Part shown: positions 16,661 through 56,438 of the stretch, one piece after another
Layout of the letters: the number at the start of each line of letters is the position of its first letter
Position numbering within the stretch: position 1 is the stretch's first letter
Origin: Wolfiporia cocos
Lineage: Eukaryota; Basidiomycota; Agaricomycetes; Polyporales; Phaeolaceae
Assembly: GCA_029448655.1 (NCBI GenBank)
Contig: JACCLO010000001.1
Coordinates: 558,001-622,000, forward strand
Direction: 5' to 3'
DNA: 64,000 nt
Notes under the pieces: generated by a model
Database searches by the model: none
What the model saw: the letters and a program-made list of their open reading frames with translations, nothing else
Told to the model about the DNA's origin: nothing
Program-made: the position numbers and the translations under genes

Positions 16661-17466
16661 CTACAACTGGGGTTTGCCGAGGTCGAAGTTGAGACCGCTA
16701 TGTACTAAATGTGTCTTTAAGTACGTAACGTGCTGTTTCACGTCCAGATCTCCAAAAACGTGCTCCACCCTCCTGAGATATTTTTCGAGGCGGCGGAGGT
16801 CTTCGTTCTTCATGGAGTCCTGACGGACCCTTTGCTCCAGGTGTGTGGAGAGATCGTCGAAGTCGGTGACGAGGGTGCTATTATCGGGGCCGTGGTGGTT
16901 GCGTCGGGGACTTTCCAAAGCCGGAAAAGGTTCTTGTGGGCGGCGTTCATCTGTTTGTCGACGTCCAAGAACCAGTCCCACTTCTTTTCCGTGCAGTGGA
17001 CGTCCCTGGGGTTTGCAAGTCCCCGCTTCTCGATCCACTCGGCCGGCATCCTAAGCTCCTCCACTCTCTCTAACAGCGACTTCTTTGGGGGCTCAATTCG
17101 CTCCCGAAGACTCCTCACCATTCTCTCTTCCTCAACCCTCTTCCTGGCTGCCTCGGCGATTAGCTGATCCAGGCTTTGCTTCTGGATCCGAGCCTCGAGC
17201 TTCTCCTTCTGTCGGAGGAGCTTGTTGAGCTTCTTTCGCCTGATGTCGTCGAGGGCGGCCTCGTGGTTGACCCTTCGGATCTCCTCTGGGTCGGGGTTTG
17301 GCTTCTTGTAGAAGACGTCTTTGCCCTTTCGGGACTTTCCTCGCTTTGGGGCTGTGACCGCGGAGATGCGGTCTTCGAGCGATTTAGAGGCGGCAATGTG
17401 CCATTCCTCGCGCTCCCCCGTAGCGGCGTTTCTCGGGGTAACCGTGAAACGTGGTGCTTTCGGCAT
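16661..17466 (-). pseudogene. Family-1 preGag ORF, frameshifted copy
   Basis: The start ATG at 17466 begins MPKAPRFTVTPRNAATG. The frame matches the intact copies at 26944-27759 and 41364-42179 until about 16885. There, roughly 10 bp are missing relative to the others (around APIIAKFTALITDF), which shifts the frame. The C-terminal part (DFDDLSTHLEQRVRQDSM... to GKPQL) continues in another frame to TAG at 16661. No known family was recognised. See the intact copy at 41364 for domains. Confidence 0.85.
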
Positions 17467-21963: not shown

Positions 21964-22785
21964 TTACACCGTAATTTGTAGCGCTACGCATTCTGCTACG
22001 ATACGGGCCAAGTCCGTACGCCAATCCAAAAAGGAAATATTGCCGAGCTGTTTGCAATACTTTTTCATAATTCTCCAGTCTCTATTGGTGATCCTCCCTC
22101 GTCTCGCTCTATCCTTTACGTTATCCACCAAGTCCTCCAATTCTACTACCATAGTATGGAAACGCATGTCGTTTTCCATATGGAAGCCTGGGTAATTAGG
22201 GGGGTGGTTGGCGAGAGGAGTAAGACGAGTGAGAGTGCCTTCTAGCATGGGAATAACTTGATCGCATGCTTGGAGGGGTTTCTTCTTTCCGAAGACGAGG
22301 GAAGGGTCGAGAATCTTGTGGTTGGCCGGAACAGAAGGTCCGGCCGTCGGGCTGGAGAGACGGAGGGCCAGTGAAGAAGCTACTTGCTTGGCTTCCTTGG
22401 CGGCTTGTTTGGCGGCGATTCGCTTATTCAGCTTATCGCGGGCGAGCTTGAGCTTGTTGAGTTCGCGGAGTTCGATTAGGTTCTCCATGGCGGTAATGGA
22501 AGCGGCTAGCTTCTCTTCCTCTGTCCAGATTCGCTTGGCGAGCGGAACTGGCTTGGGAGGTCGAGGAGCGGGTTTCCCAGCCTCAGCAATGTGCTTTGGC
22601 ATGTGGACGGGAATCTCCCAAAGATGGAGCTTCCCGGTGTAGTCTTCCTTTACAGGAAGAGTGTAGGTGACGTCCTCTGCCCGAGGAATGTCGGCGGTGT
22701 CGATGCGGCTGAGAAGGGACCGCTTCGCCGGTTTAACGTAGGGGGCAGTGGAGGAGCCACGGGTGCGACGGGTAACGCGGGGCAT
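21964..22785 (-). CDS. Family-2 preGag ORF (minus copy)
   Basis: The frame starts at ATG 22785 (MPRVTRRTRGSSTAPYVK); an in-frame ATG at 22809 is also possible. It ends at TAA 21964, about 270 codons. It has a basic N terminus, a short LHLWEIP motif, a Lys/Ala-rich helix likely to form a coiled coil, and a C-terminal helical part with KKPLQACDQVIPML and RITNRDWRIMKKYCK. The copy at 48927-49826 is longer by about 30 residues at its C end. Similar ORFs sit before gag in families 1 and 3. No named domain was recognised; a role in RNA binding or particle assembly is only a guess. Confidence 0.85.
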   Translation of the reverse strand: MPRVTRRTRGSSTAPYVKPAKRSLLSRIDTADIPRAEDVTYTLPVKEDYTGKLHLWEIPVHMPKHIAEAGKPAPRPPKPVPLAKRIWTEEEKLAASITAMENLIELRELNKLKLARDKLNKRIAAKQAAKEAKQVASSLALRLSSPTAGPSVPANHKILDPSLVFGKKKPLQACDQVIPMLEGTLTRLTPLANHPPNYPGFHMENDMRFHTMVVELEDLVDNVKDRARRGRITNRDWRIMKKYCKQLGNISFLDWRTDLARIVAECVALQITV

Positions 22786-26943: not shown

Positions 26944-27759
26944 CTACAACTGGGGTTTGCCGAGGTCGAAGTTGAGACCGCTATGTACTAGATGAGTCTT
27001 TAAGTACGTAACGTGCTGTTTCACGTCTAAGTCTCCAAAAACGTGCTCCACCCTCCTGAGATATTTTTCGAGGCGGCGGAGATCCTCGTTCTTCATGGAG
27101 TCCTGACGGACCCTTTGCTCCAGGTGTGTGGAGAGATCGTCGAAGTCGGTGATGAGGGCGGTGAATTTTGCTATGATGGGGGCCGTGGTGGTTGCGTCGG
27201 GGGCCTTCCATAGCCGGAAAAGGTTCTTGTGGGCCGCGTTCATCTGTTTGTCGGCATCCAAGAACCAGTCCCACTTTTTCTCCGTGCAATGGACGTCCCT
27301 GGGGTTCGCAAGACCCCGTTTCTCGACCCACTCGGCCGGCATCCTCAGCTCCTCCACTCTCTCCAACAGCGACTTCTTTGGGGGCTGGATTCGCTCCCGA
27401 AGACTCCTCACCATTCTTTCATCCTCAACCCTCTTCCTGGCTGCCTCGGCAATTAGCTGATCCAGGCTATGTTTCTGGATCCGAGCCTCGAGCTTCTCCT
27501 TCTGTCGGAAAAGCTTGTCCAGCTTCTTCTGCCTAATGTCGGCGAGGGCGGCCTCATGGTTGACCCTTCGGATCTCCTCCGGGTTGGGGTTTGGCTTCTT
27601 GTAGAAGACGTCTTTGCCCTTTCGGGACTTTCCTCGCTTTGGGGCTGTGACCGCGGAAATGCGGTCTTCGAGCGATTTAGAGGAGGCTATGTGCCATTCC
27701 TCGCGCTCCCCCGTAGCGGCGTTTCTCGGGGTAACCGTGAAACGTGGTGCTTTCGGCAT
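26944..27759 (-). CDS. Family-1 preGag ORF, intact minus copy
   Basis: 271 codons from ATG 27759 (context gtcATGc) to TAG 26944. It has an N-terminal part with WHIASSKSLEDRI and a Lys/Arg-rich stretch, a central charged region predicted by eye to be coiled coil (RQKKLDKLFRQKEKLEARIQ), and then the block PAEWVEKRG...CTEKKWDWF also seen in family 3. A C-terminal helical region (DLSTHLEQRVRQDSMKNEDL) follows. Conserved length and open frame in two of three copies argue that it encodes a protein. It precedes gag by about 155 nt. The function is unknown. Confidence 0.87.
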   Translation of the reverse strand: MPKAPRFTVTPRNAATGEREEWHIASSKSLEDRISAVTAPKRGKSRKGKDVFYKKPNPNPEEIRRVNHEAALADIRQKKLDKLFRQKEKLEARIQKHSLDQLIAEAARKRVEDERMVRSLRERIQPPKKSLLERVEELRMPAEWVEKRGLANPRDVHCTEKKWDWFLDADKQMNAAHKNLFRLWKAPDATTTAPIIAKFTALITDFDDLSTHLEQRVRQDSMKNEDLRRLEKYLRRVEHVFGDLDVKQHVTYLKTHLVHSGLNFDLGKPQL

Positions 27760-36030: not shown

Positions 36031-36567
36031 GGCCACTCCTTGATTCCATTGAGTTTCGCTGGGTCCATCTGGATATTTCCTGGGGTGATGACTAGTCCCA
36101 GAAATTCGACCCTGTTGACACCAAAAGCGCATTTCTCGGGTTTCACAAAGAGATGGTTGTCCACCAATCTCTGAAGGACCCGCCGCTCCCGTTCCTTGTG
36201 TATTTTCTCGTTTTCTGAGAAAATGAGGATGTCATCCATATAAACAAGCACCATCCTTCGAGGATTTCTTCTTTCAGGATTTCGTTCATCATTGCCTGAA
36301 AGGTTCCGGGTGCGTTGCACAGTCCGAAAAACATAACTGTGGGCTCGTACAACCCTCGGTTTGTTTTGAAGGCTGCTTTCCATTCATCTCCCTTCTTGAT
36401 CCGCACGTTGTTGTATCCCGCTCTAAGGTCCATTTTTGTGAAGATCTTTGCTCCTTTTAGCTTTTCCAGGAGCTCTGAGATCAGTGGCAAGGGATAGACG
36501 TTCTTTATCGTCCCTTCGTTCAGATATCGATAATCTTGACAGGGTCGTAAGCCGCTGTCTTTCTTTG
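36031..36567 (-). pseudogene. pol: RT fragment of a different Gypsy lineage
   Basis: The minus strand encodes [72 protein letters not shown] and PEKCAFGVNRVEFLGL, with a frame break near 36260. The motifs ([13 protein letters not shown]) differ clearly from families 1, 2 and 4 (YLDD, VVDYRRLN), so this belongs to another Ty3/Gypsy group. Both ends are cut by LTR sequence. Confidence 0.85.
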
Positions 36568-36616
36568 TGACGCAGACACTCACTAAGACTGAAATATAAG
36601 GGTTGAGGGGCGGTGT
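36568..36616 (-). repeat. 3' terminal ~50 bp of LTR-H
   Basis: TGACGCAGACACTCACTAAG and the following ggggcggtgtc match 57514-57563. It lies where the 3' LTR of the family-3 element should end, and joins directly to the gag C-terminal codons. A deletion from gag to near the LTR end therefore seems likely. Confidence 0.65.
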
Positions 36617-38441
36617 CGTTATCGGCGTCCGAGTCCGTCGCCGCGACCTCCTCAATGTGCGCGCGGGTGAGCGTCCCCACGGTGGATGTGGTGGCACTCT
36701 GCCCCTCGTCGTTGTCCTCCTCGTCCGTCTCATATCTCTCAATGATGCGGACGAATCGGCGCTTCTTGCCGTCGTTAGCAGGTGCCGGCCTGCTCGACGT
36801 TGATGATGTGTTTGATGACGACCCGGCTGTCGTCTTTGGCGCGGAGGGGGCGGTTCCCTTCGGCTGGCCCTTCCACTTGCAATCGTTCCAGCCGGTTGTA
36901 CAGTTGTCGCGACCGCACTGGGCGCACTTGTGGGGGGGAGAGACTAGAATCCTCTTCCCGTCCTTGAGTACGCGCCACGATGCATCGGGCCTAGCGTTAT
37001 CGGGCAAACTTTGTCCCGCCTTCTTTGCCTTGGAGTCCCCACCGCTGGCGGTCTTTACAGATCCGCTGGTTTGGGATGTAGTGATGGTGGCGGCCTTCTT
37101 GCCGCCCGAGCGAACCTCTGCCTTCTTCGTCTCCTTCTTCCCGTCTTCAAAGATACTCCCGGTAATAGCATCGGGGTACGCGTCCTTGTAGAACTCGATA
37201 GCCATATCGAGATAGTTTTCCCACTCGGTGGGGGCGGGGTGCTTGATGATTTTCAACATCGAGAAGCCGTCGCGTACCTTCTCAGGTAACGCGTCCTTGA
37301 GCTCCTCCAGCACCGTCGAGTTCTCGAGCTCCTCCAGCACCGTCGAGTTCTCGGACTTCGCCGCTTTGACAAGTTGGCGGAGTCTCTCTGCATACGTGAA
37401 AAAGTTGGCTTTCGCCTTCTTCTTCCCCTCGTCGCCGAAATACCCTTTGATCTCCTTACGGGCCACCTCCTGATCCGTCTTCTTCCCGTAGACGCACTCC
37501 ATGTCGTCCTCAAACTCCTTCCACGTTCCTAGGGATTTCGTTACGTCTACCAGATCCCTAATCCTCTTTTCCTGATACTGGAACGCTGACCCTGATAGAC
37601 GCTGCAGGGCTTCGACGATCTGCTCCCGCTCCTGGTAGATTTTCGCTACCGAGAAGTACATGATGCACTTCTGGAGCCATTCCTTTACCGGGATCTTGGA
37701 TCCATCTCCGGTGAAGGTCGGGGGAGGCGTCGCCTTGGGGCGAAGAGGTGCTACTCCGGCAGGAGCAGCGGTGGTGGTTGCGGAAGTGGAGGCCGGTGCC
37801 GCCGCGGCAGCGGCCTCGAGTTTGGCGAGGCGATCGGCGAGATCGCGCGTGGTCGTGGACTCCAATTTACGGAGTCTGGTGAGGGCGGAGTCGAGGTCGT
37901 CACGGGCCGACTTGACCCGGTTTTCCGATGCTGCCAGGCGCGCCTCCAGGAATTTGGTGCACTGGCGGTGCTCGTCTGCCCTGTGAAGGACCAGACGCAG
38001 CCTGGAGTCTAGAGCGTATCGGAATCGACGAAGTTCCTCGTCCGTGTACCTTGCTGCGACGTTGGCGTTCTTGCTCATGAAATTTAGACATAGTTGAAAT
38101 GTCTGGCGGAGGGCGGCATGTTCGGCTTCGGGAATGCCGTCGAACGCGTCTTCGGCCACCTCGAATTCCTCCCTGACGGGTAGGACCTCCTGACTTTCAA
38201 ACTCCAGGGCCGTGTACTCGCCATAGATAGGCGGTAACTGCTCGTTCCCTATTACGGGACCCGAGAAGTGAGTTGGCCAGAGTTCTGACGGTGGGAGTCT
38301 GGGGCGAGGAGCTGAGCGGGGAGCGGGCGTCCGTGGTGGACGCGAGACGGGTGTGGGGGAGGTGGTTCGCTCCGGGGTGTGCACAGGCGAGTTGACCGCA
38401 GTGCGGGAACCGGAAGCTTCGGGTTGCGGGGTCTGCGACAT
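36617..38441 (-). pseudogene. gag: Family-3 gag
   Basis: The frame from ATG 38441 (MSQTPQPEASGSRTAV) is open for about 600 codons to the LTR-H remnant. It has a Pro/Ser/Thr-rich N end, a helical region (NRVKSARDDLDSALTRLRKLE), an alanine linker, a gag capsid-like domain (PPPTFTGDGSKIPVKEWLQKC... YGKKTDQEVARKEIKGYFG) and a Cys cluster [16 protein letters not shown]. That cluster has four Cys in place of CCHC. A tandem duplication of 27 bp (NSTVLEELE twice) lies near 37310-37355. Its natural C terminus and the pol are missing. Confidence 0.82.
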
Positions 38442-38633
38442 GGCTAAAAACCTGGTAAGCACTTGTTTGATAAAGCGCGGGAAGCCCTGTGAAAGGAGGA
38501 GAACCGGAAAAAAGGTACGTAATTACTAAAAGGTATCTACTGCCATGTGTTGTGCCTTTCTTGAGCGCGAGCTTGAAGTCACACGATAAGAAGCGATAAA
38601 GCAAGATCCCTTCTCAGGTGATCTGCGAGGGTG

Positions 38634-39536
38634 TTACATTTGGTGGACTGGGAACCATACATTGAGGGCATTGAGGCCCCGTATTATACGTTGTATGTGC
38701 TCCCTATCTACGCTAGGATACCCAGTCATAAAGTTCCCTATGATCTTACAGTTCTTAACCAACAAGCGCATCTGCTTGTTATCGATCCGATCCATGAGGA
38801 CCGCCTCGATGAATCCCTTGCACACTGTCTGGAGATCCCGTATGAGGTTGGTTACCTCGTATGTGGGATGACCGTTGCAGAGGTCTGCGTTCGCCACGAT
38901 GCAGGCATACACCGGGGAAAGTACCTTTGCGGTCTCCAGAAGGGTAGGAATTACCTTAGCACCCCAGTCAAACTTTTTCTCCGTGCAGGAGATGTCGAAG
39001 ACGTTGAAGTCCCGAGGGATGTCGTAGAGGCGTCTTTCAGCCCACTCGGCCCGCGGCAAGCGGACGAGGTCGACGATTTTTTGGAGTTCGTCGGGCGTGA
39101 GGATGCGGTTCATAAGCGACTGATCGGGGGGCGGAGGCGCGCGTCGTGCGCGGGAAGCGGCGTCGGCCTCGACATGGCGAGCTACTTCGGCTTCTTCCTC
39201 TAAGCGTCGCTCGCGGGCGCGCTTAGCAGAAAGGGCCGCGTACTCTCCCATGGCCTTGGCTTCTTCCTCCGCTATCTGCTGGTTTCTTGTCTTGATGGTA
39301 ACGGGGCCGAGGCGAGGCCCGTGGTACTTGGGCTTCCGGATGAGGTCTTCCACCTCCTTTCCGCTCTTGGACGGAATGTTCCAGAGCTCCGGTTTACCGT
39401 TGGCCGCGTTGGTAACGACCATCTTGTCCGGCATCTTGCCGGTGTCACCCTTCTGCTTCTGCTTCTTGATAATCGGGCCGGCCCTCAGGCGCGCCTCGAG
39501 CATCTTGATGGACTTCTCTTGTCGCTCGGCAGGCAT
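38634..39536 (-). CDS. Family-3 preGag ORF
   Basis: About 300 codons from ATG 39536 (MPAERQEKSIKM) to TAA 38634. It contains LWNIPSKSGKEVEDLI, matching WHIASSKSLEDRI of family 1, and a long charged helix (EEEAKAMGEYAALSAKRARE). The block AEWAERRLYDIPRD...CTEKKFDW (family 1: AEWVEKRG...CTEKKWDW) follows, and a C-terminal helical region with RIDNKQMRLLVKNCKIIGN matches RITNRDWRIMKKYCKQLGN of family 2. It therefore links the three preGag ORFs as one family. The frame is intact although its element is truncated. No known domain was recognised. Confidence 0.87.
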   Translation of the reverse strand: MPAERQEKSIKMLEARLRAGPIIKKQKQKGDTGKMPDKMVVTNAANGKPELWNIPSKSGKEVEDLIRKPKYHGPRLGPVTIKTRNQQIAEEEAKAMGEYAALSAKRARERRLEEEAEVARHVEADAASRARRAPPPPDQSLMNRILTPDELQKIVDLVRLPRAEWAERRLYDIPRDFNVFDISCTEKKFDWGAKVIPTLLETAKVLSPVYACIVANADLCNGHPTYEVTNLIRDLQTVCKGFIEAVLMDRIDNKQMRLLVKNCKIIGNFMTGYPSVDREHIQRIIRGLNALNVWFPVHQM

Positions 39537-40039
39537 GGCTATGTAACTACGTGAGAAAGCTTGTACTAAATGACTACGTAAAAAGGTCCGGAAACGGCCG
39601 TTCTTGATGCGATAAGGTGTCATGTCGGTGAGTCGACGACGGCGTGCATCTCTCTCATACACGTCTGGAGTGGAAGATACAACGAGTCCCGCTTCCCTTG
39701 CGGTCTCGGTAACAGGCCAGATTAGGGTATTACACCCATGGTGGCTAGCCGCAGCACTCCCAAACGTCCACCGCAGGCAAGCTAGCCGCCGCTGAGAAGT
39801 GGTGACCGGGAGATCCCGTTAAGGTTCAATCCCATGTGGTCATTAGGCCGGCAAGCCGGGTTTTAGTCTGGTTCCCGAAGGAACGAGGCTGTGTCCTTAC
39901 GTCTGGACAATAAACGTGTTACTAAGTGACGAGGATAGGTCTGGGGCATCGCCCATGTCTGATCCACCGCCGCTGTTCACATTAACGGCCCTTTGCAGGT
40001 GCCGCTAATAACCCATTGAATGGCTGGTCGTTGCCATGT
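39537..40039 (-). other. Family-3 leader, truncated by LTR-B
   Basis: Non-coding on both strands as far as seen. It carries the leader hairpin (minus GGGT-GTAAT-ACCC, about 39725-39737), flanked by pairing CCA/TGG. The family-1 element begins at 40040, so LTR and primer site are lost. Confidence 0.7.
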
Positions 40040-40658
40040 TGTCACAAGAATTCTCCTAGTTTCCCTATATTTCTTACTATTTTTCCGGCAATTCTACGAA
40101 TTATCTACGACTTTCTAGACCAATAACTAGCTTATCTGGTTCATAAGTTAACGGTTACATACGTGCCGAATGATGGCCGCGTTATCTCCCGTAACGACGG
40201 TCTTATCTTATCACTAGTGGTTACCATCAGTCACATGTCTAGTTCTAGCCAATCGGACGTTCCGTCCGGAAGCAGTCAGCGTATAAACGTCAGCGGACCG
40301 GGCTTTGGTCACGCCCCGTCTTTGTAATGACAAGAGCGCAAAACGCCATTCGTGCGGCCTACGCCGCCTTTCTATATCCCGGTTTTGATCGGTATATGTA
40401 TTTATCATATATTACTAAGTACTTAGGTACCTGGGGACTTGTACATACGAATACGGACACTAGTATTATCTAATAAGACTGTTAGGGGTCTTATTTATCA
40501 TGTATATATACTGGACTTGCTGAGCGCTATTGCCTCAGTTCTATTCATTGCATTCATACTACGAGTTAACCACTCCGCGTATCCTGCTTAACTCTTACTA
40601 CTATCCTGCCTAACCAGCAAACCAAGCAACTATTACAAGTAAGTGTTATCTTGTGTTA
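40040..40658 (+). repeat. LTR-B, 5' LTR (plus copy)
   Basis: 619 bp, TGTCACAAGAATTC to CTTGTGTTA. TATA at 40503-40510 and the putative transcript start AGTTCTATTCAT at 40537-40548. Confidence 0.92.
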
Positions 40659-40660
40659 TA

Positions 40661-40671
40661 TGAATAGAACT
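40661..40671 (+). promoter_or_regulatory. self-primer binding site, family 1
   Basis: TGAATAGAACT, 2 nt after the LTR, complementary to AGTTCTATTCA at 40537-40547, about 34 bp downstream of the TATA start. Confidence 0.78.
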
Positions 40672-41135: not shown

Positions 41136-41363
41136 AAATCCTGCATTCCCAGGCGTCAAGGGAAGACGACCTGCTGTATCCCCCACCTGGTAGCGTGAGA
41201 GAGACGCCATCCAGTCGCCGACACTAACTCCGGTCGAGGGCGGAGCGCCCATTGACGCCGGAGGATAAGCGCACGACACATCAAGAAGCGACGATAAGCC
41301 CCGACAGAAGACCGCGTGATATTCCACTAGAATAGCTTACTTAGACTTCTTTTTTACGTAGTC

Positions 41364-42179
41364 ATGCCGAAAGCACCACGTTTCACGGTTACCCCGAGAA
41401 ACGCCGCTACGGGGGAGCGCGAGGAATGGCACATTGCCGCCTCTAAATCGCTCGAAGACCGCATCTCCGCGGTCACAGCCCCAAAGCGAGGAAAGTCCCG
41501 AAAGGGCAAAGACGTCTTCTACAAGAAGCCGAACCCCGACCCAGAGGAGATCCGAAGGGTCAACCACGAGGCCGCCCTCGACGACATCAGGCGAAAGAAG
41601 CTCAACAAGCTTCTCCGACAGAAGGAAAAGCTCGAGGCTCGGATCCAGAAACAAAGCCTGGATCAGTTAATCGCCGAGGCAGCCAGGAAGAGGGTTGAGG
41701 AAGAGAGAATGGTGAGGAGTCTTCGGGAGCGAATTGAGCCCCCAAAGAAGTCGCTGTTAGAGAGAGTGGAGGAGCTTAGGATGCTGGCCGAGTGGGTCGA
41801 GAAGCGGGGTCTTGCGAACCCCAGGGACGTCCACTGCACGGAAAAGAAGTGGGACTGGTTCTTGGACGTCGACAAACAGATGAATGCCGCCCACAAGAAC
41901 CTTTTCCGGCTATGGAAGGTTCCCGACGCAACCACCACGGCCCCCATCATAACGAAATTCACCACCCTCATCACCGATTTCGACGATCTCTCCACACACC
42001 TGGAGCAAAGGGTCCGTCAGGACTCCATGAAGAACGAAGACCTCCGCCGCCTCGAAAAATATCTCAGGAGGGTGGAGCACGTTTTTGGAGATCTGGACGT
42101 GAAACAGCACGTTACGTACTTAAAGACACATTTAGTACATAGCGGTCTCAACTTCGACCTCGGCAAACCCCAGTTGTAG
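41364..42179 (+). CDS. Family-1 preGag ORF, intact plus copy
   Basis: 271 codons, ATG 41364 to TAG 42179. Residues about 1-50 are basic with EEWHIAASKSLEDRI, and 60-120 form a charged helix with heptad-like spacing. Residues about 145-170 hold LAEWVEKRG...CTEKKWDWF, and 190-271 form a helix-rich C terminus. No Cys/His finger, protease or polymerase motif is visible. Differences from 26944-27759 are few and mostly conservative. The position directly before gag, the shared family across three element types, and maintained frames support a real protein that may join the particle; this is inference. Confidence 0.88.
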   Translation: MPKAPRFTVTPRNAATGEREEWHIAASKSLEDRISAVTAPKRGKSRKGKDVFYKKPNPDPEEIRRVNHEAALDDIRRKKLNKLLRQKEKLEARIQKQSLDQLIAEAARKRVEEERMVRSLRERIEPPKKSLLERVEELRMLAEWVEKRGLANPRDVHCTEKKWDWFLDVDKQMNAAHKNLFRLWKVPDATTTAPIITKFTTLITDFDDLSTHLEQRVRQDSMKNEDLRRLEKYLRRVEHVFGDLDVKQHVTYLKTHLVHSGLNFDLGKPQL

Positions 42180-42184
42180 TAGAT

Positions 42185-42272
42185 AGAAAGTCCTGAAAAG
42201 GCATTTTTTTTGGTGCATGGCATTGATTGCGAAAAGTCCTGAAAAGGCACTTAAGTCCTGAAAAGGCACTTT
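42185..42272 (+). repeat. three copies of AGTCCTGAAAAGGCA between preGag and gag
   Basis: Copies begin near 42187, 42234 and 42252. The spacer between the preGag stop and the gag ATG at 42331 is about 150 nt. The first and second copies are separated by a T-rich run and gtgcatggcattgattgc. Confidence 0.85.
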
Positions 42273-42330
42273 TTTCTTGAATTATCGTTTAAGGAAGAAA
42301 ATAACTCAAGCTGACGAATACTGTCCAGCA

Positions 42331-47207: not shown

Positions 47208-47905
47208 TGTCACAGATCTGGGACATGCCACTATTTTTCCCGTATTTTTACCTATTTATCTGGTATTTCTACGACCTTGTAGACATTTACGCTGCTAAGC
47301 GCCCGTCTACACGTACACGCAACCAAACAACACGTACACAACGCGGTATACGTCCACTTGTCATAACAACACGTACATAACACGTTTGTACGCGTCAATG
47401 ACTCAGCGGATTAACCTCCGGAGTCACGTGCCTTACTCATATCCCGGTACCGGGCTATGTCAGTACAATTGGATAAGCGGCCCGCTCGTTATCATATGCC
47501 AATGACCTTACGATTACTCATATCCCGATACCGGAATATAAGAATCACATGCATGGCTTACTAACGTAGCTACAGCCACTTCCACAACATGGACCTACGG
47601 TCCAAACAAACGATCTTACTGGTGCGGCCATTACCGGCGCACATGGTCTATTGCAGTTTACGACTTAACCATATTAGTTATGTCTGCGCACAGACCACCT
47701 TCATGTTTGGCTCCCTTACCGGTAACCAAACAAAGCATGTATATAAGTAGGGCTATCGCTACGATAAGCCTTAGATTTGTTCTCTGCATTCGCACAGTCA
47801 CATATCATCTCTGCTTGCGCCCACTAGTCTCCTCACCAACCTCCAGCAACTCCTTCAAGTCGCTTATTAGGTTAAAGCGTGAGTCCCACAGTCTAGTCTG
47901 TGTCA
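47208..47905 (+). repeat. LTR-C (subtype C1), 5' LTR
   Basis: 698 bp, TGTCACAGATCTGGGAC to CTAGTCTGTGTCA. TATA at 47739-47746. Palindromic sites ATATCCCGGTACCGGG and ATATCCCGATACCGG lie near 47448-47463 and 47520-47534. The box GCGCACAGACC lies near 47686-47696. Confidence 0.92.
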
Positions 47906-47907
47906 TA

Positions 47908-47918
47908 AGAACAAATCT
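47908..47918 (+). promoter_or_regulatory. self-primer binding site, family 2
   Basis: AGAACAAATCT, 2 nt after the LTR, is complementary to AGATTTGTTCT at 47773-47783, 33 bp downstream of the TATA box start. Confidence 0.8.
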
Positions 47919-48612: not shown

Positions 48613-48926
48613 AGCCACTTTCCGGCATCGTCCCTCCGGGGCGGTGTCGTGTATCCGAATCCCAATCATCTGACCCAGGAACCGGCCTGGCAGTCAGCAA
48701 CTCTACCCCTGGAGTCGGCGCCTCTGACCGTTAGGGTCATGCGAATATCCGCGCCGTCTCGGCACAGGGTTTGCGCGCAACATAAGAGTAATTATGCCCC
48801 GTAGTACACCTTCTTTGCTCCTGAAAAGGAGTCCACTACCCTACCTTACATAAACCCTTTCATTCCTGTTCTTGGACGTATCACTGGGAAACTTCGTTTC
48901 TCATGAAAGCTGCACTTTCTAGAATC

Positions 48927-49826
48927 ATGCCCCGCGTTACCCGTCGCACCCGTGGCTCTTCCACTGCCCCTTACGTTAAGCCGGCGAAGCGGTCTCTTCT
49001 CAGCCGCATCGACACCGCTGACATTCCTCGGGCAGAGGACGTCACCTACACTCTTCCTGTAAAGGAAGACTATACCGGGAAACTCCATCTTTGGGAGATT
49101 CCTGTCCACATGCCAAAGCACATCGCTGAGGCTGGGAAACCTGCTCCTCGACCTCCCAAACCAGTTCCGCTCGCTAAGCGAATCTGGACAGAGGAACAGA
49201 AGCTAGCGCAATCCATTACCGCCATGGAGAACCTTATCGAACTCCGCGAACTCAACAAGCTCAAGCTCGCCCGCGATAAGCTGAATAAGCAAATCGCCGC
49301 CAAACAAGCCGCCAAGGAAGCCAAGCAAGCATCTTCTTCACTGGCCCTCCGTCTCTCCAGTCCGGCGGCCGGACCTTCTGTTCCGGCCAACCACAAAATT
49401 CTCGACCCTTCCCTCATCTTCGGGAAGAAGAAGCCTCTCCAAGCATGCGATCAAGTCATTCCCATGCTAGAAGGCACTCTCACCCGTCTCACTCCTCTCG
49501 CCAACCACCCCCCTAATTACCCAGGCTTCCATATGGAAAACGACATGCGTTTCCATACTATGGTAGTAGAATTGGAGGACTTGGTGGATAACGTAAAGGA
49601 TAGAGCGAGACGAGGGAGGATCACAAATAGAGATTGGAGAATTATGAAAAAGTACTGTAAACAGCTCGGCAGTATTTCCTTTTTGGATTGGCGTACGGAC
49701 TTAGCTCGTATAGTAGCAGAATGCATAGCGCTACAAGTTACTTTTGCCTTCGGTGTAACACCACCTGACAAGGTGGCAGGGCCCTCAACTACTTCGGTAG
49801 AAGAGGATATACTCGCGATTGTATAG
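48927..49826 (+). CDS. Family-2 preGag ORF (plus copy)
   Basis: About 299 codons from ATG 48927 (MPRVTRRTRGSS); an upstream in-frame ATG at 48903 would add eight residues. The order is basic N terminus, LHLWEIPVHMPK, Lys/Ala-rich coiled-coil-like helix (ELNKLKLARDKLNKQIAAKQ), KKKPLQACDQVIPML, and helical C part with RITNRDWRIMKKYCKQLG. Compared with the minus copy (21964-22785) it has a C-terminal tail of about 30 residues, so the true end is uncertain. The family match to families 1 and 3 is weaker at the N terminus and best in the C-terminal half. Function unknown. Confidence 0.85.
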   Translation: MPRVTRRTRGSSTAPYVKPAKRSLLSRIDTADIPRAEDVTYTLPVKEDYTGKLHLWEIPVHMPKHIAEAGKPAPRPPKPVPLAKRIWTEEQKLAQSITAMENLIELRELNKLKLARDKLNKQIAAKQAAKEAKQASSSLALRLSSPAAGPSVPANHKILDPSLIFGKKKPLQACDQVIPMLEGTLTRLTPLANHPPNYPGFHMENDMRFHTMVVELEDLVDNVKDRARRGRITNRDWRIMKKYCKQLGSISFLDWRTDLARIVAECIALQVTFAFGVTPPDKVAGPSTTSVEEDILAIV

Positions 49827-49969
49827 TAGAAATACTATCATCTTTTAACTCTGAAATAGAGTGCGAGTGTGATCTATAACGAAAGTTGCAGCTTTCAAAA
49901 CCAATCCCTTCTTAAGAATCTAAGACAATGAGTAACCGGAAACTAACATTCGTCACAAACAGATTCACG

Positions 49970-51961
49970 ATGTCCTCCACCTCCTCCGTTAGCACTCCCC
50001 TCGCCCCCCGCAAGATGCGCCTCCGCTCAGAAGGCCCGGTGACACCGGAAGCTGGTCCCTCGGGAACACAGCAGCTGGTGACGCTGGAGCATCTAAGCAA
50101 GGAAGAGGAAGAGGAAGAGGAAGAAGAAGTGCCGGAGTTCATTCCCCCGCAAAGAGAATCTCCGACCAACCCCATGGGTACACGCCCAGGCACTCCCATC
50201 GCCGGTTACCCACCGGCTCGTCGCACCCGCCCGATCGGGCCCGCCACACATCTCGAACGAGAATTTTCCGGCCCAACACGGCAAACCAATGCCGCCGTCG
50301 AAAACAATCTCAAGGCGTACCTCCCCGAGGAGGAACACCACAAGGTGGACGGGTCCATACATGGGCCAATCCTTGATGCTGCCGTGCAACGAAGCGCGGC
50401 AATTAGTCACAACACCACCGACGTTCTCGGTCGAATGGTGCACGCTCGCCTGGAGCGAATCCACGGCAGAATCGACTCCCTGGTTGGGCAATCCAGGGCC
50501 ATCGAACAAAAGGCCCAAGACGAGCTGCACGAAGCGGTCAACTCGGTCCGCAACGAGGTGTTGTCCACCATGGTGGACCTTGGCAAGGAACTCCGGCAGG
50601 AGTACACAGCCAAGTTCTCCGAAATGGAGAAACAGCTCCGGAAGGACTACCGGTCCCGGCTTGACGACCTCGAGGATGCGTTCGCCGAACGCATGGAGAA
50701 GGTCGACGAGGAACTCCGGAGGATTCGCAAGAATCCCTCTGTTCCCAACCCTCCCGGTGTCCGCACGCCCCCGGAAGACCCACCAGCGGCCCCCGGTAAC
50801 GCTCAAACCCGAGCAGCCGGAGCCGCTGCCGCCGCACAAGCTGCAGCCGCTGCCGCAGCAGCCGTCGCCCCGCAGATTCCAGGTCTGCCTCAAAACCTGA
50901 AAATCCCCCCTCCCCCAGAATTCTCTGGGTCATCTGGAAAGGTGACCGCACAGGAATGGGTGGAGAAGATGGGTCTCTACTTCGGCACCCTCCGAGTTTA
51001 CGACGACCACGACCGCATTACCACCGCCCTGTTCCGAGTAACGGGGGACGCCTACAAATTTTTCTCGCCTCTTATCAAAAAGGCAGGAAACGGCGAGCCC
51101 CTCGGCACATGGGAGGACTTCACCAAGTCGGTGATGGTCCAATACAGTAAAATGACGGACAAGGAAATCGCGAAAAAGGAGATCCGAGGCTACTACGGTA
51201 CCAAGGGCAAGGAACTCGCCGAATCGAACTATTTCAATTACTGCGAGCGTTTCGGTACCCTCGGCCGCCTATCGGAAACCGCCAAAGAGACCCTGGTGTG
51301 GGAGTTCACCGAAACACTCCCCGAAAAGGTTAAGGACACCTTGAACGTCCTCGGCAAAACCCCGTTCTTCAAGGCCCTGACCGACATCGAGCCCCTCATC
51401 GACTTTGCTCTGGAAATGTACCAAACGTCATATCCAGACAAGATCAAGGGCTCGATCTTCGAGAAGGCCGGCAAGAAGGACTCGGTCCCTGCCGAAAAGA
51501 AGGAGACGTCCTCCGCTTCTGCAAAGAAGTCGGAGAAAAAGAAGGACAAGGGAAAGGCGCCCGCCAAAGCCCCCGCCGACACCGCCAACGCCGTCTGCAC
51601 TTACTGCAAGCAGACGGGACACTATTTCAACAAGTGTCCTAAGCTTGCCGCAGACAAGGCTGCGGGAACGTTCGTGCCTGCCGCTCAGCGGGCCGAACAA
51701 CAAAGGGCGAAGGATGCAGCTGCCGCGTCTGGAAAGACCACGGCTGCCCCTTCGGGTAGTGGAAAGGGACAGGCTTCTGGCAAGAAGCCGTACTCGGCGC
51801 CCCCCGCGGATGGCAAGACGTATCGTGCCCGAACGATCTGGGAAGAAGTGACGGCTGACTCAAGCTCAGCAGGACCCTCGGCCCCCGCCACCACTGTCGC
51901 CAATGTCGGGACCATCTCGGTTCCCCTCACCCCAACCACACGTCTCGAAGACGTTCTGTGA
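49970..51961 (+). CDS. gag: Family-2 gag
   Basis: ATG 49970 is chosen because the minus copy keeps this start, while the upstream in-frame ATG at 49928 is followed by a stop there. The product has an N region with an acidic run (EEEEEEEEVPEF), coiled-coil-like helices (KAQDELHEAVNSVRNEV; MEKVDEELRRIRK), an alanine linker, a capsid-like gag domain (PPPEFSGSSGKVTAQEWVEKM... KMTDKEIAKKEIRGYYG) and a Lys-rich tail with CCHC knuckle CTYCKQTGHYFNKC. It would form the particle and bind genomic RNA. The stop TGA at 51959-51961 overlaps the pol frame. Confidence 0.92.
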   Translation: MSSTSSVSTPLAPRKMRLRSEGPVTPEAGPSGTQQLVTLEHLSKEEEEEEEEEVPEFIPPQRESPTNPMGTRPGTPIAGYPPARRTRPIGPATHLEREFSGPTRQTNAAVENNLKAYLPEEEHHKVDGSIHGPILDAAVQRSAAISHNTTDVLGRMVHARLERIHGRIDSLVGQSRAIEQKAQDELHEAVNSVRNEVLSTMVDLGKELRQEYTAKFSEMEKQLRKDYRSRLDDLEDAFAERMEKVDEELRRIRKNPSVPNPPGVRTPPEDPPAAPGNAQTRAAGAAAAAQAAAAAAAAVAPQIPGLPQNLKIPPPPEFSGSSGKVTAQEWVEKMGLYFGTLRVYDDHDRITTALFRVTGDAYKFFSPLIKKAGNGEPLGTWEDFTKSVMVQYSKMTDKEIAKKEIRGYYGTKGKELAESNYFNYCERFGTLGRLSETAKETLVWEFTETLPEKVKDTLNVLGKTPFFKALTDIEPLIDFALEMYQTSYPDKIKGSIFEKAGKKDSVPAEKKETSSASAKKSEKKKDKGKAPAKAPADTANAVCTYCKQTGHYFNKCPKLAADKAAGTFVPAAQRAEQQRAKDAAAASGKTTAAPSGSGKGQASGKKPYSAPPADGKTYRARTIWEEVTADSSSAGPSAPATTVANVGTISVPLTPTTRLEDVL

Positions 51962-54900
51962 AGAACACACCAGCCCCGCAGTGGCTGGGAGTGTACAGTG
52001 CCCCGAAGAAGCGCACCTCTACGAAGAGGCTTCACAGAGACCCCTTATCTTGTGGGAAGATAAGGCGGTCGTACGTCACTCGGTATCCCATCTCGGAATA
52101 TTCGGTAACTCGGCAACGGACTTTGCCCGGAGGACAAGGACACTAGCTACACGTGCCCCTCCTGTACAATACTTTCATCCTGACCCCACCGCGCTGAAGT
52201 TTTTTACTTTGTATAATGTACACGGAAATGATTCTCGAGACGACAATAAATCATTTTCCATCGAAGTAGAATTGTGGGTATACGGAAAGAAAGTCAACGC
52301 CATGGCATTAATCGACACCGGTGCATCCATAAGCGTCATCGATAAGAAACTCGTCCATGAGGAGAAGTTAGTCACTCAGAAACTACCTTCACCTCTCGAG
52401 ATTCGCAACGCCGACGGTACCTCTAATACCGCCGGTAATATCAATATGGCAGTAAAAGCTTATATGGTGCACGAGGAACACAAGTCCACCGAATTCTTGT
52501 ACGTAATGGACGTACAAAATGCGGATGTGATCCTCGGATATGACTGGTTCCTGAAACACAACCCGGACTTCAACTGGCCGGAAGGAACCTTCACATATCG
52601 GTGTATGGAAAAATGCAAACATGGCAAACGGGTTTCGATTTCTGAGGAAGAAGATGAAATTGAACCCCGCAACATCTATCAGATCATCAACGACTTTCCA
52701 ATAGATTTTCTCGGCTTAGAGGAGCCTGAGAATCCCTTTGTCGCTTGGGTGAACACCCTTGACGAAGGAACGGAACTCCTTATCGATGCCATTCAGTCGA
52801 TAACGGAGAAGTCGGATGATGAATTCCTGACAGATGCGGATCTCCAGAAATGGAAATCCTTGGTTCCGGAGGAATACCAGGAGTTTGGTCCCACGGTATT
52901 TTCTCAACGCGCATCCGAAAGAATGCCCGAACGGAAACCATACGACCACGCCATCGACTTTCCCGATGACGCGGTACTACCGCCCCCGAGTAAGGCATAC
53001 AAGATGTCTCCTCAGGAAGCGAACTCGCTAGATCAGTGGATCCAGGAAGAGTTACGGAAGGGCTACATCCGACACTCAAAATCCCCGGTCGCAAGCCCGG
53101 TCTTCTTCGTCCCTAAAAAAGACGGCGGAGCCCGAATGGTAGTCGATTACCGAAAAGTAAACGACTTGACCATTAAAAATAGGTACCCTCTCCCACGCAT
53201 AGACGAGCTTATCGATAAGCTTAGCCAGGCTTCGATATTTACGAAGCTCGACTTGCGTTGGGGTTACAACAACGTAAGAATCAAGGAGGGAGATGAATGG
53301 AAGACCGCATTCATTACGCCTAACGGCCTTTACGAAGCTGTAGTCATGTACTTCGGTTTTTGTAATGCACCCAGCACGTTCCAACACATGATGAACGATA
53401 TCCTAGGTGACCTTATCAGAGAAGGAAAGGTCATTGTCTACCTAGACGACATCCTTGTGTTCGGAAACGACTTGTTGGAACACCGTCGTATCGTCAAGCA
53501 AGTATTACAAATCTTGCAGGACAACGACTTGTTCGCGAAGCCTGAAAAGTGCTTCTTCGAACAAAGCAGTATTGAATACCTGGGAATGATTATTTCCAAA
53601 GGGAAAGTCGAAATGGACCCTAAGAAGGTAGCCGGTGTAATGGACTGGCCTACACCTGCCAAGGTGAAGGACGTCCAGGCCTTTGTTGGCTTCGCCAACT
53701 ACTACCGTCGGTTCATTAAAGATTTCTCCAAAGTGGTTAAGCCGTTAACCGAACTGTCCAAGAAAAACACGCAGTGGAACTGGGGACCCGAACAAGCGGA
53801 AGCCTTCCAAACTCTCAAGGAAGCTTTCACATCGGCTCCAATACTCCGGATCCCAAATCAGGAGTCCCCGTTCCACGTGGAAGCGGATTCTTCCGATTAC
53901 GCAACTGGTGCAGTGCTATCGCAATACTCTTCGGAGGATAAGCTCTGGCACCCGGTAGCCTTTTACTCGAAATCTCTATCAGCACCCGAAAGGAACTATG
54001 AGATTTACGATAAGGAGTTGCTTGCAATCATCCGCGCTCTAGAGGAATGGAGACATTACCTCGAAGGACACCCGCACAAATTTGAAGTATGGTCGGATCA
54101 TCTCAATCTGACATATTTCAAATCGGCACAACGGCTAACCCGGAGACAGGCACGTTGGAGTCTTTACCTGACAAGGTTCAACTTCACCATGTGCCACAAA
54201 CCCGGTAAAACAATGCTCACGGCTGACCCTCTGTCACGGAGGCCAGACCATGAAGAGGGGGTGGAACTCGACAATCGCGATCAAATTTTGCTGAAACCGG
54301 AATATTTCACGGTTAGGGCGCTAGAAGCGTCACAGCAGGAGATACAATCAGGCGACGAGGACCTTCTCCGACAAATCCGACAAGCCCTCATGGACGATCA
54401 GATTACCAAGGATTACCAGGAACTACTGAAAAGTGGTCCCAAGGAATTCGGTAAAGATCTCCAGGAATGGAACATGGAGGCCGGATTACTCCTCAGACGA
54501 GGAAAAGTGTACGTTCCAAAAGAGCCTAAGGAATTACGCACGAAGATTCTGGAGTTACATCATGACCATGTAACAGCCGGTCACTTCGGACGATGGAAGA
54601 CCTATGAACTTCTATCACGTAATTACTGGTGGCCTGGAATGACCACGATGGTAAAGCAATACGTGGAAGGTTGTGACACATGTCAACGCATGAAGAACCG
54701 CAACCAGACCCCGTATGGACCCCTGCAACCGCTCCCAGTACCGGAAGCACCCTGGGACACAATCACAATCGACTTCATCGTCCACTTACCGCCCAGCGGC
54801 GAACGCAAACAATTCACTGCTATTATGGTAGTAGTGGACCGATTGACCAAGCGCGCACATTTCATTCCCACGTCAGACAATATCTCGGCAAAGGAATTAG

Positions 54901-56438
54901 CGAACCTCCTGTATCTCCGGATTTATCCGAATCACAGTCTTCCGAAACAAATCATTTCGGACAGAGGACCGCAATTCTCTTCTGAGTTATTCAAGGGATG
55001 GTGCGAGCAATTGGGAATTCAGAGGTCGATGACGACAGCCTACCACCCGCAAGCGGACGGCCAAATGGAGAGAATTAACCAAATTCTAGAACAATACTTA
55101 CGATGCTACATCGACGTTATCCAAAAAGATAACTGGGTATTCTATCTCCCCACGGCAGAGTTCGCGTACAATAACGCGGCTAGTGAGACGACCAAGAATA
55201 GTCCATTCTTCGTCGAACTAGGAAGGCATCCCAATGCAGGACCTACGGATTTGAAGCCGACGCAATATTCGGATTTAAATCAATTTGCTTACGCCAGATG
55301 GTCAGCACAAGAACAAGCTAAGGCAGCTATGAAACTGGCTGCTGAACGCTGGTCTTGGTATTATGATCAACATAAGCGCTCGGTACCGTTTAAAGTCGGC
55401 GACAAAGTACTCGTTGACGCCCGTAGCTGGCAAGACTCCGAAAGAAGTCTTAGTCCACGCTATTTGGGACCATTTAAGATAATTGAACAATTATCTCCGG
55501 TCACCTTTAGGGTACACATGGACGAGCAATACAGGGCTTACCACCCCGTATTTCACGCTTCCAAGTTGGTCATGTACAAGGACCCGGTGCATCAGAAAAA
55601 ACCAGAGCCTCAACCAGAAATGGTCGACGGCGAGGAATTATGGGAAGTCGAGAAGATCTTAGATCATCGTCTCCGCGCAGGAAGAGTTGAATACAGAATC
55701 CGATGGAAGGGATTCGGTATCAATGACGACTCCTGGGTACGCGAAGCCGATCTCGACTCGGCATATGACATTCTGCAGGAATACAAGGCTTCACACCCTA
55801 TCCCGATGCAGGATGTTCCCCTCAGGCGATCAGCTAGAAGGAAAGAAGCAGTTCATGTCTTCGACCCTGACAGCGACGACTGGGAAGCCGACGAATGCAC
55901 GTGGCCAGACGACTGGCCGCAGTATCGCGAAAAATTTGCGAAGGATCCTAAGCAACGCATGGTTAGACACCCCGACGGGGGATGGATGTCAGCGGACATT
56001 AACCAAAATGCGGATTTGAAAATCGTAGTCGGTGAAGGCGGCCGAATGCCGGAAAAAGGAACCAAGGACTCGGTTGGGTTTGACCTGTACACTGCAACAG
56101 GCGATGTTCTGCCAGCTCACGGGCAGACAGAATACAACACCAAACTGAAGATCCAGGTACCTTTCGGCACTTACGGACGTATCGCCCCCCGCTCTAGTCT
56201 TGCCCGCAAAGGCATAGACGTAATGGGTGGCGTTATCGACCACGACTATCAAGGCAAAGTAATCATCATTCTCCGGAATCACTCCGATATATCAATCGAT
56301 ATTCGGGCCGGTGATAAGATTGCTCAGCTTATCTGCGAAGTTGCTAAGGACCCGCACATTACGCTACACGGAAAATCTTACTTTGAAAAGATTAAATCCG
56401 AGCGCGGTACTGGTGGATTCGGCTCCACAGGAAAGTAA
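51903..56438 (+). CDS. pol: Family-2 pol polyprotein with C-terminal chromodomain and dUTPase
   Basis: 1511 codons if started at ATG 51903, in the +1 frame relative to gag and overlapping it by 59 nt. The real start may be a frameshift or reinitiation. Protease D138-T-G, RT active site YLDD at 513-516, RNase H (EADSSDYATGAVLSQ), integrase HHCC (H886, C924, C927) and D957, D1020, E1056 (D,D-35-E) are all present. GPF module, chromodomain about 1245-1297, and dUTPase about 1370-1511 with [29 protein letters not shown] and RGTGGFGSTG follow. All catalytic residues looked for are present. The chromodomain suggests targeting to marked chromatin; the dUTPase suggests control of uracil in cDNA. Both roles are inferred from families. 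Confidence 0.93.
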   Translation: MSGPSRFPSPQPHVSKTFCEEHTSPAVAGSVQCPEEAHLYEEASQRPLILWEDKAVVRHSVSHLGIFGNSATDFARRTRTLATRAPPVQYFHPDPTALKFFTLYNVHGNDSRDDNKSFSIEVELWVYGKKVNAMALIDTGASISVIDKKLVHEEKLVTQKLPSPLEIRNADGTSNTAGNINMAVKAYMVHEEHKSTEFLYVMDVQNADVILGYDWFLKHNPDFNWPEGTFTYRCMEKCKHGKRVSISEEEDEIEPRNIYQIINDFPIDFLGLEEPENPFVAWVNTLDEGTELLIDAIQSITEKSDDEFLTDADLQKWKSLVPEEYQEFGPTVFSQRASERMPERKPYDHAIDFPDDAVLPPPSKAYKMSPQEANSLDQWIQEELRKGYIRHSKSPVASPVFFVPKKDGGARMVVDYRKVNDLTIKNRYPLPRIDELIDKLSQASIFTKLDLRWGYNNVRIKEGDEWKTAFITPNGLYEAVVMYFGFCNAPSTFQHMMNDILGDLIREGKVIVYLDDILVFGNDLLEHRRIVKQVLQILQDNDLFAKPEKCFFEQSSIEYLGMIISKGKVEMDPKKVAGVMDWPTPAKVKDVQAFVGFANYYRRFIKDFSKVVKPLTELSKKNTQWNWGPEQAEAFQTLKEAFTSAPILRIPNQESPFHVEADSSDYATGAVLSQYSSEDKLWHPVAFYSKSLSAPERNYEIYDKELLAIIRALEEWRHYLEGHPHKFEVWSDHLNLTYFKSAQRLTRRQARWSLYLTRFNFTMCHKPGKTMLTADPLSRRPDHEEGVELDNRDQILLKPEYFTVRALEASQQEIQSGDEDLLRQIRQALMDDQITKDYQELLKSGPKEFGKDLQEWNMEAGLLLRRGKVYVPKEPKELRTKILELHHDHVTAGHFGRWKTYELLSRNYWWPGMTTMVKQYVEGCDTCQRMKNRNQTPYGPLQPLPVPEAPWDTITIDFIVHLPPSGERKQFTAIMVVVDRLTKRAHFIPTSDNISAKELANLLYLRIYPNHSLPKQIISDRGPQFSSELFKGWCEQLGIQRSMTTAYHPQADGQMERINQILEQYLRCYIDVIQKDNWVFYLPTAEFAYNNAASETTKNSPFFVELGRHPNAGPTDLKPTQYSDLNQFAYARWSAQEQAKAAMKLAAERWSWYYDQHKRSVPFKVGDKVLVDARSWQDSERSLSPRYLGPFKIIEQLSPVTFRVHMDEQYRAYHPVFHASKLVMYKDPVHQKKPEPQPEMVDGEELWEVEKILDHRLRAGRVEYRIRWKGFGINDDSWVREADLDSAYDILQEYKASHPIPMQDVPLRRSARRKEAVHVFDPDSDDWEADECTWPDDWPQYREKFAKDPKQRMVRHPDGGWMSADINQNADLKIVVGEGGRMPEKGTKDSVGFDLYTATGDVLPAHGQTEYNTKLKIQVPFGTYGRIAPRSSLARKGIDVMGGVIDHDYQGKVIIILRNHSDISIDIRAGDKIAQLICEVAKDPHITLHGKSYFEKIKSERGTGGFGSTGK

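What the first reader, a model, noticed from the sequence alone, without database searches (positions are those of the whole stretch)
41364..42179. A conserved extra ORF (preGag) before gag in three divergent Gypsy families
ORFs of about 270-300 codons precede gag in family 1 (41364-42179, 26944-27759, broken 16661-17466), family 2 (48927-49826, 21964-22785) and family 3 (38634-39536). Families 1 and 3 share WxI...SK...ED.I near the N terminus and AEW.E.R...CTEKK.DW in the middle. Families 2 and 3 share RI.N...R...K.CK..GN near the C terminus. All have a basic N part, a charged coiled-coil-like middle and a helical C part. The LTRs and gag N-terminal regions of these families are unrelated by eye, so the ORF seems to be an old, kept component. 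I know of no named family. Possible roles include RNA chaperone, particle scaffold or nuclear transport; none is shown.
Basis: partly seen in the sequence, partly recalled or inferred. Interest (0 to 1): 0.88.

Follow-up and report, generated by a model that had tools for sequence, protein, structure and literature searches.

The report
Spliced extra gene before retrotransposon gag
Several families of retrotransposons (copy-and-paste jumping genes) in this likely fungal genome carry a strongly conserved extra gene in front of their shell-protein gene; conserved splice-site sequences suggest that it is made from its own spliced message, and it would most likely handle the element's unspliced RNA.

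Summary
The ORFs are real, homologous and under strong purifying selection (pN/pS 0.03-0.09, below gag in the same copies). F2 gave 131 genome matches, 130 without a stop. Further sublineages carry preGag, and 6 of 7 distant gags checked have it upstream (one of these cut by a stop). No Pfam or informative fold match; two database searches found relatives only in a Wolfiporia cocos and a Fusarium falciforme record. New here, predicted from DNA alone: (1) in 8 of 8 leaders counted, a single GTRAGT splice donor sits in U5, 16-29 nt before a self-priming primer site; (2) YAG lies 2-4 nt before 12 of 12 preGag ATGs and within 14 nt before 10 of 11 gag ATGs, with a CTRAC branch site at gag in 6 of 11; (3) exon 1 has no AUG, the leader 5-13; (4) bulged GNRA hairpins cluster between preGag and gag (14 against 0.1 expected), and one covaries. 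Best reading: alternative splicing yields a preGag or a gag-pol mRNA, while unspliced RNA keeps the primer site and hairpins; preGag is most likely an oligomeric basic protein acting on that RNA. No RNA or protein evidence exists.

The parts
41364..42179 (+). preGag ORF, family 1 (271 aa), open
26944..27759 (-). preGag ORF, family 1, second copy (271 aa), open
16661..17466 (-). preGag, family 1, third copy, frame broken after about residue 199
48927..49826 (+). preGag ORF, family 2 (299 aa), open
21964..22785 (-). preGag ORF, family 2, second copy (273 aa, C-terminus differs)
38634..39536 (-). preGag ORF, family 3 (300 aa), open
40040..40659 (+). 5' LTR of the family 1 element; inferred RNA start (R) at 40537
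   Evidence: right end approximate
40639..40644 (+). predicted 5' splice donor GTAAGT in U5, family 1
   Evidence: 8 of 8 family 1 copies fetched
40660..40671 (+). self-priming primer-binding site, family 1 (complementary to the R start)
41359..41361 (+). predicted 3' splice acceptor TAG before preGag ATG, family 1
   Evidence: 8 of 8 copies fetched
42234..42271 (+). two GAAA-tetraloop hairpins with a bulged C between preGag and gag, family 1 (a weaker third near 42192)
42311..42328 (+). predicted branch site CTGAC and 3' acceptor CAG before gag ATG (42331), family 1
47208..47905 (+). 5' LTR of the family 2 element; inferred RNA start (R) at 47773
47879..47884 (+). predicted 5' splice donor GTGAGT in U5, family 2
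   Evidence: 30 of 30 copies fetched
47908..47918 (+). self-priming primer-binding site, family 2
48920..48922 (+). predicted 3' splice acceptor TAG before preGag ATG, family 2
   Evidence: 30 of 30 copies fetched
49823..49838 (+). GAAA-tetraloop hairpin over the preGag stop codon, family 2
49943..49962 (+). predicted branch site CTAAC and 3' acceptor CAG before gag ATG (49970), family 2
49928..51961 (+). gag ORF, family 2 (longest ORF; spliced start would be 49970)
51903..56438 (+). pol ORF, family 2: PR, RT, RNase H, INT, chromodomain, dUTPase
39539..39541 (-). predicted 3' splice acceptor TAG before preGag ATG, family 3
   Evidence: YAG here in 27 of 27 copies counted
38604..38624 (-). GNRA hairpin with bulged A after preGag stop, family 3; compensatory changes among copies
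36423..38441 (-). gag ORF, family 3

Best explanation
preGag is a conserved gene of a group of Ty3/gypsy retrotransposons, likely made from its own spliced mRNA, and it most likely encodes an oligomeric basic protein that would act on the unspliced genomic RNA. Proposed working: transcription starts at R, and the U5 donor can join either to the acceptor just before preGag (preGag mRNA) or to the acceptor just before gag (gag-pol mRNA), so that the first AUG decides the product (inferred from conserved sites). RNA that escapes splicing keeps the self-priming site, the structured leader and the hairpins, and would be the only species that can prime its own reverse transcription (follows from the order of the sites). 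preGag, with a basic N-terminal third, a predicted 54-64-residue helix and a predicted C-terminal helical bundle, would bind the unspliced RNA, perhaps at the hairpins, and take it to the particle or out of the nucleus (untested).
For: Homology. Selection: pN/pS 0.073 (F1), 0.083-0.094 (F3), 0.032 (F2), against 0.131, 0.119 and 0.099 for the 5' part of gag; F2 and F3 copies were fetched by protein score, which favours low pN, F1 copies by DNA score. Donor: exactly one GTRAGT between R and preGag ATG in 8 of 8 leaders counted, 95-111 nt from R and 16-29 nt before the PBS; kept in 8 of 8 F1 and 30 of 30 F2 copies and in 24 of the 25 F3 copies where the stretch was found, of 27, also where F1 flanks have diverged. 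Acceptors: YAG 2-4 nt before 12 of 12 preGag ATGs (background 0.14) and within 14 nt before 10 of 11 gag ATGs (background 0.34); CTRAC 11-15 nt before the gag acceptor in 6 of 11, in F5 as TACTAAC. First-AUG logic: exon 1 has 0 ATG in 8 of 8, the leader 5-13; the 11 preGag-gag gaps examined have 1-4 ATGs each. Hairpins: 14 in 2268 nt between preGag and gag against 0.10 in shuffles, no such excess in leader, preGag or gag; covariation in F3 at 3 of 8 pairs, 1 of 500 shuffles, none when slid. Charge and helices.
Against: No transcript, peptide or binding data. The preGag acceptor has a consensus CTRAY branch site in only 1 of 12, and the gag acceptor lacks one in 5 of 11 (F1b and the F3 series); in F3e the nearest YAG is 29 nt before the gag ATG. 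The intron would be about 0.5-1 kb for preGag and longer for gag, long for a fungus (recalled). A purine at -3 is also good start-codon context, so part of the YAG signal could be that. The eight leaders and twelve starts are related sequences, not independent trials. Four searches for spliced junctions in the genome found none (and 105, whose single hit is unspliced); expected if spliced RNA lacks the PBS, but no support. Strict hairpins are absent in F1b, F3d and F3e. Gag, with its own basic tail, could be the hairpin binder instead.
Confidence: 0.45

Rival explanations
1. preGag and gag are both translated from one unspliced RNA: ribosomes shunt over the structured leader to preGag, and reach gag by termination-reinitiation helped by the hairpins, as in plant pararetroviruses.
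For: Long leader with several AUGs and predicted structure; some hairpins sit at or just after the preGag stop codon. Shunting over such leaders is described in PMC5902531 (passages read).
Against: No AUG in the first 95-111 nt, so no short ORF close to the 5' end; 1-4 AUGs lie between preGag stop and gag ATG, though the one in F2 is in frame with gag; does not explain the conserved U5 donor or the TACTAAC-YAG before gag.
Confidence: 0.2
2. preGag is a structural particle component (scaffold or matrix-like partner of Gag) with no specific role for the RNA hairpins.
For: Lies directly upstream of gag, selection as strong as on gag, long predicted helix and helical bundle.
Against: A separate ORF gives no fixed ratio to Gag; does not by itself explain the hairpins or the basic N terminus.
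Confidence: 0.2
3. preGag is an N-terminal part of Gag joined in frame by a small intron or frameshift.
For: It lies next to gag, and Gag N-termini differ between families.
Against: Gap length and frame differ between near-identical copies (151-157 nt in the 7 of 8 F1 copies found, 143-145 in the 12 of 30 F2 copies found, 216 and 217 in L080 and L081); no strong donor downstream of the preGag ATG in 12 of 14 sequences listed.
Confidence: 0.05
4. preGag is an accessory protein aimed at the host, for instance against silencing or for targeting.
For: Between families it has diverged more (21-27% identity) than gag or Pol.
Against: Within families it is as constrained as gag or more so, which is unlike an arms-race protein.
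Confidence: 0.1

Closest known systems
dUTPase-bearing fungal chromoviruses (PosPlaTy3 elements of Postia placenta; elements of Phanerochaete chrysosporium)
   Same: Chromodomain in Pol and dUTPase at the Pol C-terminus as in PosPlaTy3-4; the figure legend lists an 'add. ORF' of unknown function (PMC2864245, passages read).
   Different: The passages do not describe the ORF's position, splice sites, hairpins or conservation, and the figure is not held, so identity with preGag could not be checked.
Retrosat2 ORF0 of rice and relatives
   Same: An extra ORF of unknown function in a plant LTR retrotransposon, diverging faster than the enzyme ORF (PMC3485330, passages read).
   Different: Plant elements with LTRs over 3 kb; no homology test was made here.
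Ogre/Tat elements with an ORF upstream of gag (recalled)
   Same: Extra ORF before gag.
   Different: Plant lineage; not compared by sequence here.
BARE spliced Gag RNA
   Same: Separate RNA pools: a spliced subgenomic mRNA for Gag and a distinct packaged RNA (PMC3735527, abstract and outline read).
   Different: One ORF; splicing favours a Gag-only RNA, not a choice between an upstream gene and gag. That BARE is a Ty1/copia element is recalled.
Complex retroviruses (Rev and its response element; recalled)
   Same: Early donor, alternative acceptors, unspliced genomic RNA, a basic regulatory protein as a proposed analogy.
   Different: env was not searched for, no sequence relation shown, function of preGag untested.

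Membership tests
Ty3/gypsy chromovirus | RT, RNase H, integrase and chromodomain in Pol | tested here: met
   family 2 Pol: RVT_1 2.3e-34, RT_RNaseH 5.5e-35, rve 3.9e-12, Chromo 7.7e-11
Ty3/gypsy chromovirus | Gag with Ty3-type capsid | tested here: inconclusive
   Ty3_capsid E 3.6e-5 (F1), 0.0024 (F2), 0.17 (F3), all below the curated cutoff
Tf1/sushi-type self-priming elements | PBS complementary to the 5' end of the RNA | tested here: met
   11-12 nt complement in the LTR, 114-135 nt upstream, in 8 of 8 leaders counted; that the RNA starts there is inferred
dUTPase-bearing fungal chromoviruses | dUTPase domain in Pol | tested here: met
   dUTPase E 4.4e-32 at residues 1381-1510 of family 2 Pol
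dUTPase-bearing fungal chromoviruses | additional ORF homologous to preGag | not testable with these tools
   their sequences and figure are not held
Gag proteins | recognisable Gag or capsid domain in preGag | tested here: not met
   no Pfam family at gathering score for P0001, P0002, P0005
known folds | fold match of the helical C-terminal part | tested here: inconclusive
Retrovirus-like alternatively spliced elements | single early donor with acceptors before two genes | tested here: inconclusive
   sites conserved, no transcript data
Retrovirus-like alternatively spliced elements | spliced RNAs | not testable with these tools
   no RNA data held
Retrosat2 ORF0 / Ogre ORF1 | sequence homology to preGag | not tested
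   no reference sequences compared

The most novel reading that the evidence does not exclude
These are complex-retrovirus-like fungal retrotransposons: preGag is a Rev-like or phage-coat-like regulator that oligomerises on an array of bulged GNRA-tetraloop hairpins between preGag and gag, which only unspliced RNA and the preGag mRNA itself carry, and so switches RNA from gag-pol mRNA splicing to export and packaging of the genome.
Probability: 0.2. Interest if true: 0.87.

Novelty: new variant of a known kind. Interest (0 to 1): 0.68.

Why it matters
LTR retrotransposons must split one transcript between protein making and genome copying. If the splice sites are used, a group of likely fungal Ty3/gypsy elements solves this with a retrovirus-like choice of acceptor and an extra protein, a use of regulated splicing best known from retroviruses and plant pararetroviruses. 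The prediction is directly testable by RNA sequencing, and it gives a protein family, a profile seed and a candidate RNA target. It would also explain database entries such as the uncharacterised Wolfiporia cocos protein that matches family 2 preGag.

Full report
What is there. The window is C1:558001-622000 of an unnamed 64.4-Mb genome in 76 contigs. That it is a fungus, probably a polypore-like basidiomycete, is inferred: the most similar named Pol relatives are Trametes proteins (74-75%) and a preGag relative comes from Wolfiporia cocos (63% over 191 alignment columns). The window is a nest of Ty3/gypsy elements. The family 2 Pol carries protease, RT, RNase H, integrase, chromodomain and a C-terminal dUTPase. 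The six preGag ORFs are as reported, four of them on the minus strand.

Homology. Single BLASTP comparisons link F1 to F3 (3e-9), F1 to F2 (2e-5) and F2 to F3 (2e-4). Profile comparisons agree. Searching the whole genome with F3 brought 129 matches among 131 scored of 241 candidates: close copies, relatives at 69, 59 and 31-39%, and F1 copies at E of 3e-8 to 1e-6. F2 gave 131 matches among 131 scored of 441 candidates, 1 of 131 with a stop codon. F1 gave 142 among 142 scored of 271, including fragments and relatives at 56-58%; by my count of the listing 22 of 142 contain a stop. These lists are capped and rank by similarity, so decayed copies are under-represented.

Wider spread. Gag of family 3 also found gags 41-44% identical. 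I took the DNA upstream of seven of them. Five have an open ORF of 327-330 aa with the same layout, one (L079) has it cut by a stop, and one (L083) has none; the gag of L083 carries stops. This group, F5, matches the F3 group at 95% (E 1.9e-8) by profile, F1 only weakly and F2 not.

Selection. Between copies pN/pS is 0.073 (F1, 8 loci plus the window copy), 0.094 (F3, 27 loci of 30 fetched; two partial copies and the 69% relative left out) and 0.032 (F2, 30 loci); shifted frames give ratios above 2. One locus in each set is the window copy itself. F2 and F3 loci were chosen by protein score, which lowers pN; F1 loci by DNA score. The 5' part of gag gives 0.131 (540 nt), 0.119 (21 of 27 copies; preGag of these 0.083) and 0.099. 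preGag is thus at least as constrained as gag within families. Between families preGag is the least conserved product (21-27% against gag 31-38% and Pol 63-65%).

Protein features. All three are basic (pI 9.4-9.8), with the positive charge concentrated in the N-terminal third (F1, F3) or the first two thirds (F2). AlphaFold2 models from the five window proteins are of modest confidence (pLDDT 62.5 and 65.6). They agree on a 54- or 64-residue helix followed by a bundle of helices; the N-terminal part is mostly below pLDDT 50 in both. No Pfam family at gathering score, no credible PDB sequence for F3 and no informative fold match.

Leader and splice sites. Just after the 5' LTR, F1, F2, F3, F3d, F3e and three F5 elements have 11-12 nt complementary to a site 114-135 nt upstream in the LTR: Tf1/sushi-type self-priming (type recalled). 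This sets the likely RNA start. Between that start and the preGag ATG there is exactly one GTRAGT in 8 of 8, 95-111 nt from the start and 16-29 nt before the PBS. If the eight were independent, the chance of a GTRAGT so close to the PBS in each would be about 10^-15.9; they are related, so this overstates it. A ninth leader, F1b, was not counted because an inserted LTR interrupts it. Across copies the hexamer is kept in 8 of 8 F1 and 30 of 30 F2; of 27 F3 copies, 24 have GTGAGT, 1 GTGGGT, and in 2 the stretch was not found. In F1 it is kept although bases just before it differ.

Acceptors. In 12 of 12 preGag starts a YAG ends 2-4 nt before the ATG, where 14% of all window ATGs have one. In F3 copies the site alternates between CAG (19) and TAG (8), so a stop codon is not what is kept. 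For gag, 8 of 11 have YAG within 4 nt and 10 of 11 within 14 nt (background 34%). F1, F2 and all four F5 sequences counted there have CTRAC 11-15 nt before the acceptor, in F5 as TACTAAC. F1b and the F3 series lack it, in F3e the nearest YAG is 29 nt away, and only 1 of 12 preGag acceptors has CTRAY. The branch consensus is recalled.

Why splicing fits. Exon 1 has no ATG in 8 of 8, while the leader has 5-13, and the preGag-gag gap has 1-4 in each of the 11 examined, the one of F2 being in frame with gag and the F3 gap taken as 190 nt because the gag start of that copy was not found. Splicing would make preGag or gag the first AUG. The donor lies before the PBS, so spliced RNA could not self-prime; this fits the absence of spliced copies in four pattern searches but does not prove splicing.

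Hairpins. In eleven preGag-gag gaps hairpins with a GNNA tetraloop number 12 against 0.35 in 2000 shuffles (maximum 4). With a stricter GNRA rule and 30 nt more upstream there are 14 in 2268 nt against 0.10, while leader (2 in 6489 nt, 0.16 expected), preGag ORF (2 in 9855, 0.40) and gag (1 in 4236, 0.13) show no such excess. Nine of the 14 are from F5; F1b, F3d and F3e score none under the strict rule. The form is mostly GNRA loop, three base pairs, one bulged base, then more pairs. The rule was set after seeing examples, so these counts are partly fitted. A separate test is the F3 hairpin across 26 sequences (25 of the 27 F3 loci plus L038; 23 distinct): 98.4% of cells pair, 3 of 8 pairs have changes on both sides (1 of 500 shuffles), and slid versions have none. 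The structure came from one of these sequences, which favours it over slid versions. A second hairpin, with a symmetric internal loop, follows the PBS in 7 of 8 leaders by RNAfold. The likeness of the bulged hairpin to phage MS2 operators and lambda boxB is recalled and only suggestive.

Interpretation. Shown: homology, selection, position, conservation of the sites, the covarying hairpin. Inferred: use of the splice sites, preGag as a separate protein, unspliced RNA as the only genome. Untested: that preGag binds RNA, and where. I put about 0.9 on preGag being a real, selected gene, about 0.65 on alternative splicing, and 0.45 on the whole statement including action on unspliced RNA.

Known work. 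Nine literature searches listed no paper that, by title, abstract or the passages I read, describes this gene, its splice sites or its hairpins; the library lacks most subscription papers. Nearest are PMC2864245 (an 'add. ORF' in a figure legend; passages read), PMC2774666 (a clade of fungal chromoviruses said to carry additional genes; passages read), PMC3485330 (Retrosat2 ORF0; passages read), PMC3735527 (BARE spliced Gag; abstract and outline) and PMC5902531 (shunting; passages read).

Noticed in passing
P0126 (database protein) against window 48927-49826: A Fusarium falciforme record (longest contig 23,865 bases) encodes a protein 97% identical over 195 residues to the family 2 preGag: contamination of that assembly or a recent horizontal transfer.
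   Followed up: partly
window 6323-8199: Two identical 549-bp repeats 1328 bp apart, lying inside a family 2 pol stretch: looks like a young small non-autonomous LTR element (TRIM-like). Related single copies lie at 28550-29112 and 35469-36031.
   Followed up: no
window 59817-60422 and 61132-61737: A 606-bp pair, 100% identical and 1315 bp apart, also present once (97%) at 9756-10362 inside a family 1 pol: another possible small LTR element.
   Followed up: no
window 42331-42874: Family 1 Gag starts with about 180 residues that have no BLASTP match in the Gags of families 2 and 3; the copy at 42277-43134 seems to have an internal deletion joining this part to the capsid region.
   Followed up: no
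window 40660-40720, 47908-47960 and L010, L085-L089: A hairpin with a symmetric internal loop follows the self-priming site in 7 of 8 leaders folded; possible packaging or reverse transcription element.
   Followed up: partly
window 51903-56438, residues 1381-1510: dUTPase domain at the Pol C-terminus, behind the chromodomain.
   Followed up: no
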